NCBI RefSeq assembly: GCF_000613185.1
Contig: NZ_CCBB010000001.1
Location: 2,666,001 to 2,730,000 of the forward strand
Length of the DNA stretch: 64,000 nucleotides
Reading direction: 5' to 3'
DNA from: Mycolicibacterium cosmeticum
Lineage (GTDB): Bacteria; Actinomycetota; Actinomycetes; Mycobacteriales; Mycobacteriaceae
The notes under the pieces are model-generated. The model saw only the letters and a list, made by a program, of their open reading frames with translations. It did not search any database and was not told where the DNA came from. Each line of letters starts with the position of its first letter. The stretch's first letter is position 1. The translations under genes and the position numbers were made by a program. Positions 47,983-53,403 of the stretch are shown here, piece after piece.

Positions 47983-49044
47983 CTATGCTGCCGGGTTCTG
48001 GTCTTCGGTCTCAACCGCTGGCGCGGAATCGGCCTCGTGCGCCTCGGATTCCCCGTCCTGCGGGCCGGTGGCCACCATCACCCAGCGCTTGACGGGCCGG
48101 TCGACCGGCCTGCTCTCGAAGCCCTGGAAGACCTGCAGCACCAGCACGACGGCGGCCAGCGCGAGCAGATAGGCGATCGTGGTGGTCACCGTGTTGTTGG
48201 CGATGCCCTGCGCATCGCTGACGAAGCTGGTCGCGATGGACATCACCGACACCACCGTGCTGAACACCCAGGTGATCCACCACGCCGTGATCCGCAGCCC
48301 CGTGCGGCCCTCCGCCCGGGCCAACTCGATGAGGAACACCGGCGCCCAGAACAGGTTGACCAGTGGCACCAGGCAGCCCGCCCACAGCTGCCACTTCGAC
48401 CGCGGATCCTCCCGGCCGTTGTGCGCGAACACGCCGGCCCGGCGCGCGATCAGCCAGTTGGTCAGCACCACGGCGGTCACGATCACGCCGAACAGCGCCA
48501 GCGCGCTGGCCGCCACGCCGACCCAGGTGACCACCGCGGCCAGCACGGGGTTCAGCAGCACCGACCGATTGATCAGCAACAGGGCATAACGCACGATGTG
48601 CAGCACCGCGGCGAAGCCCAACAATCCCATCGTGGTGACCAGCGTGGCCCGCACCATGGTCGCCGACGGACCGCGACGCTCCTCGGCATCGGCGGCGGCA
48701 CCCGGGGCGTACTCACCCGGCGGGCCGTACAGGCTCCAGCGCGGGATGCTCGCGTAGCGCGGCGTGGGCCCCAAGGGGCGACGGTGAGGCCGGGGCGGGG
48801 GCGCCGCACCGGGGCGCACCGCGATCCACTTGAACCCTTGCGGCAGTGGGCCGGGTTGAGGACGGGCGGGCGGCCGGCTCGGCGCGCCGGCCGGTGGCCG
48901 CCATCGCGGATCAGGGGCACACGGCTGCGGCGGGACAGGCAGCACACCGGGAGCCAGCAGCGTGCCCCGGCACCGTGGGCACCAGACCCGCTGGCGATCG
49001 CGGACGTTCCACCGCGTCCCGCACTGGGCGCAGACCTGAATCAC
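47983..49044 (-). CDS. DUF4328 membrane protein with N-terminal zinc ribbon (Rv3843c-like)
   Basis: A 353-aa protein. A zinc ribbon opens it (CAQCGTRW...CPRCRG), then a long Pro-rich cytosolic part (to about 110), then six or so membrane helices forming the DUF4328 region, with NREDPRSKWQLWAGCLVPLVNLFWAPVFLIEL and WWITWVFSTVVSV. An acidic tail ends the protein. Function unknown. GTG at 49044. Only 4 nt separate it from glpQ1, so the two are an operon. Confidence 0.85.
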   Translation of the reverse strand: MIQVCAQCGTRWNVRDRQRVWCPRCRGTLLAPGVLPVPPQPCAPDPRWRPPAGAPSRPPARPQPGPLPQGFKWIAVRPGAAPPPRPHRRPLGPTPRYASIPRWSLYGPPGEYAPGAAADAEERRGPSATMVRATLVTTMGLLGFAAVLHIVRYALLLINRSVLLNPVLAAVVTWVGVAASALALFGVIVTAVVLTNWLIARRAGVFAHNGREDPRSKWQLWAGCLVPLVNLFWAPVFLIELARAEGRTGLRITAWWITWVFSTVVSVMSIATSFVSDAQGIANNTVTTTIAYLLALAAVVLVLQVFQGFESRPVDRPVKRWVMVATGPQDGESEAHEADSAPAVETEDQNPAA

Positions 49045-49064: not shown

Positions 49065-49406
49065 TCAGACCGTGCCGGCGGTGCCGCCGTCGGTGGTCAC
49101 CGGCCGTCCGGCCTGCGCCCACGCCAGCATGCCGCCGGTGACGTTGATGGGTTCGAAACCTTCCCTGGCCAGGTACTGGGCCACCCGCAGCGACCGGCCG
49201 CCGGCGTGGCAGACGACATAGAGGGTCGCGTCACGGTCGATCTCGTGGATCCGGGCCGGCACGTCACCCATCGGAATGTGCTGGGCACCGGCGGCGTGGC
49301 CGCGCTGCCATTCGTCGTCCTCGCGGACGTCCAACAGCACCACCGCGTCGCCGAAATCCAGGGGGACGTCCTTCACCTCGGCATGCGCCACGTCACTGTC
49401 AGACAT
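49065..49406 (-). CDS. Single-domain rhodanese
   Basis: A 113-aa rhodanese-like protein. The domain opens VVLLDVREDDEWQRGHAAGAQHIPMGD and the active-site loop is VVCHAGGRS, with the catalytic Cys present. It would carry persulfide sulfur. ATG at 49406 (MSDSDV) fits the family; the frame extends 12 codons upstream. It ends 20 nt before the DUF4328 gene. Confidence 0.88.
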   Translation of the reverse strand: MSDSDVAHAEVKDVPLDFGDAVVLLDVREDDEWQRGHAAGAQHIPMGDVPARIHEIDRDATLYVVCHAGGRSLRVAQYLAREGFEPINVTGGMLAWAQAGRPVTTDGGTAGTV

Positions 49407-49488
49407 GAGCAGACATTCTGGTCGGTCCCGCTGGGGAGGCAAGGCGTCGGGTCATGGACTCCATGCTGGCATGGGTCCGGGCCCACCG

Positions 49489-49532
49489 GCCGGTTCAGTG
49501 CCGGTTCGGCGCCGGTTCAGCGCCGGTTCCGG
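49489..49532. repeat. Four tandem 11-bp iteron-like repeats
   Basis: Units gccggttcagt, gccggttcggc, gccggttcagc and gccggttccgg follow one another without gaps. The period of 11 bp places each on the same face of the helix, as in plasmid iterons or tandem regulator sites. Confidence 0.75.
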
Positions 49533-49572
49533 ACGCACGCGACGGTCACCGGGGGTGACAGCAATGTTTCGA

Positions 49573-49764
49573 CTATCCACAGTTTCCACAGGTTCATCCA
49601 CAGGCACCGGGTGCCACCGCACCGCCGCACGCACGCGACTCCGCGGTCCCGCTGTGGATAACCTGAGCCCGCCACGGCGTCGTCATCAACAAGCGCGGGC
49701 ACCGCCGAGCGAAAAAGGTTGCTCAGCTAACTTTCACCGGAAATCGACAAACCGGTGTGGATTC
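49573..49764. promoter_or_regulatory. Cluster of DnaA-box-like 9-mers
   Basis: CTATCCACA (49573-49581), GTTTCCACA (49582-49590), TCATCCACA (49594-49602), TGTGGATAA (49653-49661, exact complement of the classical TTATCCACA box) and TGTGGATTC (49756-49764). All keep the TCCACA core on one strand or the other. Confidence 0.55.
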
Positions 49765-49911
49765 CCACCGCCGCCCACTTTCAAACGTACCGACCCCGTG
49801 CGGAGTCCGGATTTCCCGCGGGACAGCTAAGGGTTTATGATCACCGTCACTACAGCCGTGTGACAGAACTCACTGGGGGATGTTTCGAATCGTGCAGGTC
49901 AGGAGCTTGTG

Positions 49912-50067
49912 ATGGCAGCGCACCCAATGGGCCACGGATCGGCCGTGCCGCAGTCGGACTGGCAGGGAACGTCGCGGATCTACGGCAACCAGGCCATGGC
50001 GTGTCTGCGCGCCGGCGTCATCGCCCTCGTCCTCCTCGCGGTACTCGCACTCATCGTGTTGACCTGA
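49912..50067 (+). CDS. Small single-helix membrane protein
   Basis: A 51-aa open frame with ATG at 49912 and AGGAG nine bases upstream. A soluble N-terminal part (MAAHPMGHGSAVPQSDWQGT) is followed by one membrane helix, AGVIALVLLAVLALIVL, at the very C-terminus. A hairpin with a T-run before it follows at 50101, which supports a real transcription unit. I know no family. It lies between the iteron/DnaA-box region and sodA. Confidence 0.5.
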   Translation: MAAHPMGHGSAVPQSDWQGTSRIYGNQAMACLRAGVIALVLLAVLALIVLT

Positions 50068-53004: not shown

Positions 53005-53403
53005 ATGAGCAAGACGTTCGCCGCCCGGCTGAACCGGTTGTTCGAGACGGTTTACCCGCCGGGGCGTGGCCCGCATACATCTGCTGAGGTCATCGGCGCG
53101 CTGAAGGCCGAGGGCGTGACGATGTCTGCTCCGTATCTCTCGCAGCTGCGGTCGGGTAACCGCACCAATCCGTCGGTTGCCACGATGGCCGCCCTGGCCA
53201 ACTTCTTCCGCATCAAGCCGGCGTACTTCACCGACGACGAGTACTACGAGAAGCTCGACAAGGAGCTGACCTGGCTGGCCAACATGCGCGACGAGGGTGT
53301 GCGCCGCATCGCCGCCCGCACCGTCGGACTGTCGCCCGAGTCCCAGCAGGACCTGGCGCTCAAGGCCGACGAGTTGCGCCGCAAGGAGAATCTCGACAGC
53401 TGA
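53005..53403 (+). CDS. espR: EspR-type nucleoid-associated transcription regulator
   Basis: A 132-aa XRE-like DNA-binding protein. The N-terminal arm (SKTFAARLNRLFETVYPPGRGPHT) and helix-turn-helix (VTMSAPYLSQLRSGNRTNPSVATMAALANFFRI) are followed by a C-terminal dimer domain, FTDDEYYEKLDKELTWLANMRDEGVRRIAARTVGLS. It matches Rv3849, which regulates the espACD/ESX-1 locus and binds many loci. It faces a convergent pair of genes with an HExxH peptidase. Confidence 0.93.
   Translation: MSKTFAARLNRLFETVYPPGRGPHTSAEVIGALKAEGVTMSAPYLSQLRSGNRTNPSVATMAALANFFRIKPAYFTDDEYYEKLDKELTWLANMRDEGVRRIAARTVGLSPESQQDLALKADELRRKENLDS

What the first reader, a model, noticed from the sequence alone, without database searches (positions are those of the whole stretch)
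49489..49764. Iteron-like 11-bp repeats beside a DnaA-box cluster in a chromosomal gap
Seen: four gapless 11-bp repeats (49489-49532), then three DnaA-box-like 9-mers in 30 bp, then an exact complement of TTATCCACA (49653-49661) and one weaker site, within 276 bp. Iterons plus DnaA boxes are the layout of plasmid origins and of some chromosomal DnaA-titration loci. The flanking genes are a rhodanese and a small membrane protein, not replication genes. It could be a DnaA-titrating or timing site, a relic of an integrated replicon, or a multi-site operator.
Basis: partly seen in the sequence, partly recalled or inferred. Interest (0 to 1): 0.7.

Follow-up and report, generated by a model that had tools for sequence, protein, structure and literature searches.

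The report
Conserved DnaA-binding module near mycobacterial origin
A short stretch of non-coding DNA near the replication origin carries four precisely arranged landing sites for the replication-starting protein DnaA, nearly unchanged in most mycobacteria sampled and recognisable in several related genera, so it is probably a control point for when chromosomes are copied.

Summary
The DnaA boxes are real and beyond chance; the 'iterons' are real but private to this species. Three same-strand boxes (49573-49602) and an exact inverted TTATCCACA (49653-49661) form one module. Three TCCACA cores with gaps of 0-30 bp occur at two places in this 6.46-Mb genome, oriC and here (simulated expectation 0.2). 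A similar cluster pattern matches 229 of 248 sampled genomes of the genus (reversed control about 33). In 89 of 91 distinct triplet-selected loci it lies at the same gene neighbourhood, including Tsukamurella, Rhodococcus and Nocardia. The spacer varies freely in sequence, but in Mycobacterium the inverted box lies 50 or 59-62 bp away, never 51-58: whole helical turns. Distance to the right-hand promoter is not kept, and in two loci the module is inverted as a unit. Hicks et al. 2020 found DnaA bound at Rv3843c-RVnc0040 in M. tuberculosis DNA in vitro and at the M. smegmatis homologue in cells, without a function. Best reading: an oriC-proximal DnaA-pool control element, working like datA/DARS; membership untested. 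DnaA control of neighbouring genes is the main rival. Plasmid relic or second origin is unlikely.

The parts
49559..49564 (+). conserved accessory motif cAGCnA, usually 7-8 bp before box 1
   Evidence: 89-96% per conserved column in the 71-locus Mycobacterium alignment; spacing 7 or 8 bp in 50 of 71, not found by the regex in 15
49573..49581 (+). DnaA box 1, CTATCCACA
   Evidence: columns 92-100% identical in 71 loci (loci were chosen for the triplet)
49582..49590 (+). DnaA box 2, GTTTCCACA, starts 9 bp after box 1
   Evidence: columns 90-100%
49594..49602 (+). DnaA box 3, TCATCCACA here, TTATCCACA in many relatives; starts 12 bp after box 2
49603..49652 (.). spacer: sequence not conserved, length 50 bp here and 59-62 bp in most Mycobacterium loci
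49653..49661 (-). DnaA box 4, exact TTATCCACA, inverted
   Evidence: columns 92-100%
49685..49691 (+). conserved accessory motif ATnnACA
49707..49730 (+). conserved accessory motif GAGCGAAAt...TtG....gCTAA; unknown binder
   Evidence: at this locus with 0-1 mismatch in 8 of 12 genomes, not within 3 mismatches at the locus in the other 4; elsewhere in the 12 only with 2-3 mismatches
49489..49532 (+). species-specific 11-bp tandem repeats; not part of the conserved module
49836..49842 (+). -10-like promoter element TATGATC before the small gene, at variable distance from the module
49859..49873 (+). CRP-like palindrome tGTGAc..a.ctcac, 16-19 bp after the -10 element in 59 of 71 loci
49912..50067 (+). 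51-aa small membrane-protein ORF, read in most mycobacterial loci
49065..49442 (-). rhodanese-domain gene, without a hit at this place in many relatives that keep the module
47983..49044 (-). DUF4328 gene, taken as the Rv3843c counterpart by synteny and recall (inference; no M. tuberculosis record was compared)

Best explanation
The 172-bp stretch 49559-49730 is a dedicated DnaA-binding module. DnaA binds head to tail on boxes 1-3 and again on the inverted box 4, which is held on a fixed helical face across a short spacer, so that a compact bent or looped DnaA complex forms. Because it lies a few per cent of the chromosome from oriC it is copied early in each round, and the most likely job is to act on the DnaA pool after initiation, by holding DnaA or by switching its nucleotide state, so that oriC does not fire again or fires in time. 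Shown here: boxes, conservation, geometry, synteny, position. Shown by others: DnaA binding at the homologous region. Inferred: loop, effect on initiation, role of the accessory motifs.
For: Only two loose TCCACA triples in the genome, oriC (dnaA-dnaN gap) and here. Loose-cluster match in 229 of 248 sampled genus genomes (the reversed control pattern matched in about 33 by my count of its rows); the 29-mer within 3 mismatches in 18 of 22 re-examined genomes, control 0, all 18 in the same neighbourhood (14, 4). Same neighbourhood in 89 of 91 distinct triplet-selected loci, with named members Tsukamurella spumae, Rhodococcus, Prescottella, Nocardia takedensis, Mycobacteroides, M. szulgai, M. interjectum, M. 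wolinskyi. Near-invariant boxes beside a freely varying spacer. Distance from box 3 to box 4 is 50 bp (9 loci) or 59-62 bp (60 loci) of 71, 2 without a box by the relaxed pattern; in six loci of other genera 47-49 and in one 58; three changes between the two classes on a DUF4328 tree, two of them within Mycobacterium. Distance from the GAGCGAA motif to the right-hand -10 element varies: 69-193 bp in 54 loci, 256 and 295 in two. In two loci (L119, L120) triplet and inverted box together are turned round relative to the neighbouring genes. In 31 genomes with dnaA usable on the same contig the module lies 81-458 kb away (median 190 kb) and its boxes read toward dnaA in 31 of 31. DnaA binding: PMC7738170 section 9 passages.
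Against: No phenotype of this locus is known to me. The module stays beside the same left-hand genes, which also fits an operator. In 11 of 18 non-Mycobacterium loci no inverted box was found at that spacing, so box 4 is not universal; and an exact spaced triplet was found in only 22 of 38 genomes of other genera of the family (count of rows, some at other loci). Four boxes alone could hold few DnaA molecules. Proximity to oriC and orientation follow synteny and are not independent evidence. Two unnamed 3.3-Mb genomes keep SodA but have no recognisable triplet beside it, so the element is not indispensable everywhere. The long accessory motif is missing at the locus in 4 of 12 genomes.
Confidence: 0.58

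Rival explanations
1. Operator: DnaA acts here as a transcription factor for the leftward (rhodanese-)DUF4328-GDPD genes or the rightward small membrane-protein gene, coupling them to the replication cycle.
For: The module lies upstream of the leftward DUF4328/rhodanese genes in 89 of 89 syntenic loci, in one orientation in 87, and a conserved -10-like element with a CRP-like site lies to the right. DnaA is known as a transcription factor (PMC8203912, search listing only).
Against: The distance from the GAGCGAA motif to the right-hand -10 element varies from 69 to 295 bp over 56 loci, while -10 to CRP site is 16-19 bp in 59. No rhodanese hit in 39 of 66 Mycobacterium loci on the tree, so the nearest left gene changes. 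In the non-Mycobacterium loci SodA lies 1.0-5.2 kb away (14 of 18 where held) rather than 0.5-0.8 kb (46 of 48 Mycobacterium loci where held). In L119 and L120 the module is inverted as a unit.
Confidence: 0.27
2. Structural or segregation site: the module anchors DnaA or the origin region in the cell without changing initiation or transcription.
For: oriC-proximal position and one orientation relative to dnaA in 31 of 31 genomes; accessory motifs of unknown binder.
Against: I recognised no parS- or KOPS-like site by eye (motifs recalled, not searched); orientation may simply follow inversions centred on the origin.
Confidence: 0.09
3. Plasmid-type or second chromosomal origin, or relic of an integrated replicon.
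For: Tandem 11-mers next to DnaA boxes.
Against: The 11-mers are exact in none of 60 other genomes; no replication protein among ten flanking genes scanned; no stretch as AT-rich as in the oriC gap (lowest GC over 60 bp 0.48 against 0.42; a weak test).
Confidence: 0.03
4. The boxes are conserved for a protein other than DnaA.
For: Conserved motifs beyond the boxes.
Against: The repeats match the DnaA box, occur as such a cluster otherwise only at oriC in this genome, and DnaA binds the homologous region (PMC7738170).
Confidence: 0.03

Closest known systems
Rv3843c-RVnc0040 DnaA-binding region of M. tuberculosis and its M. smegmatis homologue (Hicks et al. 2020, PMC7738170)
   Same: By synteny and recall this is the same locus: a DnaA peak between the Rv3843c gene and the next transcript.
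   Different: In what I read (abstract, passages of section 9, section 12) the region is listed as bound, with 'no obvious correspondence' to other bacteria; box architecture, phasing, family-wide conservation and function are not given there. Its supplementary tables were not readable here.
datA of E. coli (DDAH)
   Same: Non-coding multi-box DnaA cluster near oriC; five boxes plus an IHF site, with spacing to the IHF site important (PMC4585315 passages).
   Different: Here four boxes, no IHF site tested, other accessory motifs; ATP hydrolysis not tested.
DARS1/DARS2 of E. coli
   Same: Core of three DnaA boxes with conserved spacer distances; DARS1 needs flanking DNA (PMC4585315 passages).
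   Different: Here three head-to-tail boxes plus a distant inverted one; nucleotide exchange not tested.
DnaA-box cluster of Streptomyces that affects replication (recalled, no text seen)
   Same: Actinobacterial non-oriC DnaA-box cluster proposed to titrate DnaA (recalled).
   Different: Locus and geometry not compared here.
oriC of the same genome (dnaA-dnaN gap)
   Same: Shares a doublet NTTTCCACA-3 bp-TCATCCACA with the same 12-bp step (this genome only).
   Different: Different placing of the inverted box, an AT-richer stretch, and dnaA/dnaN as neighbours.

Membership tests
datA (DDAH locus) | cluster of DnaA boxes outside oriC, near oriC | tested here: met
datA (DDAH locus) | IHF-binding site between boxes with critical spacing | not tested
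   no mycobacterial IHF site model used; the spacer sequence is not conserved
datA (DDAH locus) | promotes ATP-DnaA hydrolysis / limits re-initiation | not testable with these tools
   needs biochemistry and deletion
DARS | core of three DnaA boxes with conserved spacing | tested here: inconclusive
   three boxes with fixed 9- and 12-bp steps; the arrangement was not aligned with E. coli DARS
DARS | stimulates ADP release from DnaA | not testable with these tools
   needs biochemistry
iteron plasmid origin | iterons conserved with a cognate Rep gene nearby | tested here: not met
   repeats exact only in this genome of 61; no Rep domain in ten flanking genes
chromosomal origin | DnaA boxes next to an AT-rich unwinding element and dnaA/dnaN | tested here: not met
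   the dnaA-dnaN gap lies 146 kb away; lowest 60-bp GC 0.48
DnaA-binding locus | bound by DnaA | not testable with these tools
   published for the homologous region in M. tuberculosis DNA and M. smegmatis (PMC7738170); not measured in the window's species

The most novel reading that the evidence does not exclude
This is the missing DnaA-cycle control element of mycobacteria and their family: a single-copy, origin-proximal module that, with its own accessory protein bound at the cAGCnA and GAGCGAAAT-TTG-GCTAA motifs, folds DnaA on four phased boxes into a complex that resets or recharges DnaA, an independent counterpart of datA/DARS built on different parts.
Probability: 0.33. Interest if true: 0.85.

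Novelty: new variant of a known kind. Interest (0 to 1): 0.64.

Why it matters
How mycobacteria limit replication to once per cycle is poorly understood; counterparts of the E. coli DnaA switches are not established there as far as I know (recall; the rows listed by the searches showed none). This turns a published but unexplained binding peak into a defined element of about 170 bp with fixed geometry and accessory motifs that can be deleted, scrambled or re-spaced in a laboratory mycobacterium.

Tried and rejected
Iteron/plasmid relic: rejected. RNA families: two sub-threshold chance-like matches (E 0.7), one over the 11-bp repeats, none accepted; no tRNA in the window. Order-wide hits: 20 regions were fetched, one of them the own oriC; of the 19 hits, 12 are syntenic and 7 are not (L128, L132-L137). 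L128 and L132 are of the same family; L132 has another spacing and was not put into the 91-locus count. In one search, 22 of 38 genomes of other genera of the family had a match (my count of rows). Broad paper search on 'datA' matched the word 'data' and was of little use. The first tree count gave 4 and 3 changes because a loose pattern mislabelled one row (L078); corrected. One search printed nothing because of a wrong gap in my pattern; repeated. The accessory 24-mer has no second well-matched site in 12 genomes, but is not found at the locus in 4 of them.

Full report
OBSERVATION. The window lies at C1:2666001-2730000 of a 6.46-Mb genome. At 49489-49532 there are four tandem 11-mers with the core GCCGGTTC. 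Three same-strand DnaA-box-like 9-mers follow at 49573, 49582 and 49594, and an exact TTATCCACA on the minus strand at 49653-49661. All three plus-strand boxes are one mismatch from TTNTCCACA. The last 'weaker' site (49756-49764) has two mismatches and is not conserved.

CHANCE. The genome holds 19 exact TTATCCACA and 18 exact TTGTCCACA, about as many as the same words read backwards (20 and 24), so single boxes mean nothing. Clusters do: TCCACA three times with gaps up to 30 bp occurs at two places only, this one and C1:2861742-2861797 (reversed control 0). The second lies between dnaN and dnaA (ORFs of L118; dnaA place), that is, in oriC. A first-order simulation of 60 Mb of the window's composition gave 0.2 such triples per genome and none with the spacing seen here.

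CONSERVATION. A 901-bp DNA search matched 40 of 61 genomes, own included, and the piece most often recovered was query 160-206, the box triplet. A loose triple pattern (gaps 0-20) matched 229 of 248 genomes of the genus; the reversed control matched in about 33 (my count of the rows). The output lists only part of the matches, so I did not verify each as orthologous, and some genomes have additional unrelated hits. The 19 without a match plus three others (G183, G139, G557) were re-searched with up to 3 mismatches: 18 of 22 have a site, control 0, all 18 in the same neighbourhood (14, 4). Of the four misses, two have no SodA hit either (G076, 87% complete; G233, 94% complete), and two are 3.3-Mb genomes that keep SodA but show no good triplet near it (best 29-mer 11 and 14 mismatches); fragments of the small gene and the DUF4328 gene are still readable there.

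SYNTENY. I collected 94 loci with the triplet (two of three cores exact), 91 distinct; 71 are Mycobacterium in the broad sense, 18 other genera of the family, 2 (L128, L208) lie elsewhere. These loci were chosen for the triplet, so synteny is the test. All 71 and all 18 have one or more of the genes LCP, ferritin, GDPD, DUF4328, rhodanese, small membrane protein, SodA, GDT1, EspR on the expected sides; in 87 the module has the orientation seen here, in 2 (L119, L120, one genus) triplet and inverted box are turned round as a unit. The element is thus older than the genus: Tsukamurella spumae, Rhodococcus, Prescottella and Nocardia takedensis have it at the same place. It is not universal in the family: an exact spaced triplet was found in 22 of 38 genomes of other genera (rows), and some of these lie at other loci. 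The rhodanese next to it here has no hit in 39 of 66 Mycobacterium rows, and the module stays.

GEOMETRY. In the 71 loci the triplet is nearly invariant, with 9- and 12-bp steps, whereas the following spacer is unconserved. The inverted box follows at 50 bp (9 loci) or 59-62 bp (60 loci), absent by the relaxed pattern in two (which looked 40-75 bp downstream); the stricter pattern, looking up to 120 bp downstream, finds it in 63 of 71, all at 50 or 59-62 bp. In other genera it is at 47-49 bp (6 loci) or 58 bp (1), and not found in 11 of 18. The two classes differ by about one helical turn, with three changes on a quick DUF4328 tree (two within Mycobacterium). Selection therefore seems to act on the face of the helix, which implies a protein complex that spans boxes 1-4. 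Three more motifs are conserved: cAGCnA, ATnnACA and GAGCGAAAt...TtG....gCTAA; the gap GAGCGAA to CTAA is 13 bp in 45 of 71 (26 not found). In 12 genomes the last motif lies at the locus with 0-1 mismatch in 8, is not found there within 3 mismatches in 4, and elsewhere occurs only with 2-3 mismatches.

POSITION. Of 52 genomes searched for dnaA, 31 have it on the module's contig without crossing the contig start: the module is 81 to 458 kb from dnaA, median 190 kb, and reads toward it in 31 of 31; in 16 it lies on the dnaN side, in 15 on the other. Seventeen more cross the contig start and give about 87-707 kb with rounded genome sizes. Four were left out: G026, whose position I did not have, and G039, G350 and G448, other families whose triplet is not at this locus. 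The pattern fits inversions around the origin and is not independent proof of function.

NEIGHBOURING GENES. To the right a -10-like element TATGATC and a CRP-like palindrome precede a 51-aa membrane-protein ORF. Their mutual spacing is 16-19 bp in 59 of 71 loci (12 not found), but the distance from the GAGCGAA motif to the -10 element is 69-193 bp in 54 loci and 256 and 295 in two (15 not found). This argues against a classic operator for that promoter, though not against action at a distance or on the leftward genes.

LITERATURE. Hicks et al. 2020 (PMC7738170; abstract, passages of section 9, section 12) mapped DnaA in vitro on M. tuberculosis DNA and by ChIP-seq in M. [quoted passage not shown] I equate Rv3843c with the DUF4328 gene by synteny and recall. 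[quoted passage not shown] The small RNA MTS2975 maps between Rv3843c and Rv3844 and is lower in stationary phase (PMC3207917 passages), and a CRP site lies upstream of ncRv13843 (PMC4117774 passage), which fits the CRP-like site here. E. coli comparisons come from PMC4585315 passages, and a 2025 paper reports that DnaA boxes accumulate near oriC in E. coli and Salmonella (PMC12371093 passages). The rows listed by searches for DnaA clusters, titration or DARS in mycobacteria and in Corynebacterium showed no such element; only the best rows of each search are listed.

VERDICT. DnaA binding here is close to certain by homology with the published peak. That the module is a unit selected for geometry is strongly supported. 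That it controls initiation is an inference (about 0.58), with transcriptional control the main rival (about 0.27). Its likeness to datA/DARS is in working principle; membership is untested.

Noticed in passing
window 49912-50067: A conserved ~50-aa one-helix membrane-protein ORF with promoter and CRP-like site; the script read an ORF in 64 of 71 loci, 59 of them with the typical helix. In M. tuberculosis the corresponding gap is annotated as small RNA MTS2975/ncRv13843, which might be its mRNA; M. tuberculosis DNA was not examined.
   Followed up: partly
L128 7987-8535; L208 around 714: A TCCACA triplet with the same spacing overlaps the 5' end of a dciA (PF05258) gene in L128; L208 (Rhodococcus zopfii) has a similar triplet off-synteny, its gene not checked.
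   Followed up: partly
L118 8462-8997: oriC of this genome holds a box doublet NTTTCCACA-TCATCCACA with the same 12-bp step as boxes 2-3 of the module.
   Followed up: partly
L119, L120: In two loci of one related genus triplet and inverted box are turned round together relative to the neighbouring genes.
   Followed up: partly
L413, L414: Two unnamed 3.3-Mb genomes of the genus keep SodA but lack a recognisable triplet beside it.
   Followed up: partly
window 49489-49532: Species-private 11-bp tandem repeat array GCCGGTTCNNN between the rhodanese gene and the module, origin unknown.
   Followed up: yes
window 53005-53403: HTH_3 protein downstream of sodA in the place of EspR (Pfam; name recalled).
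   Followed up: no
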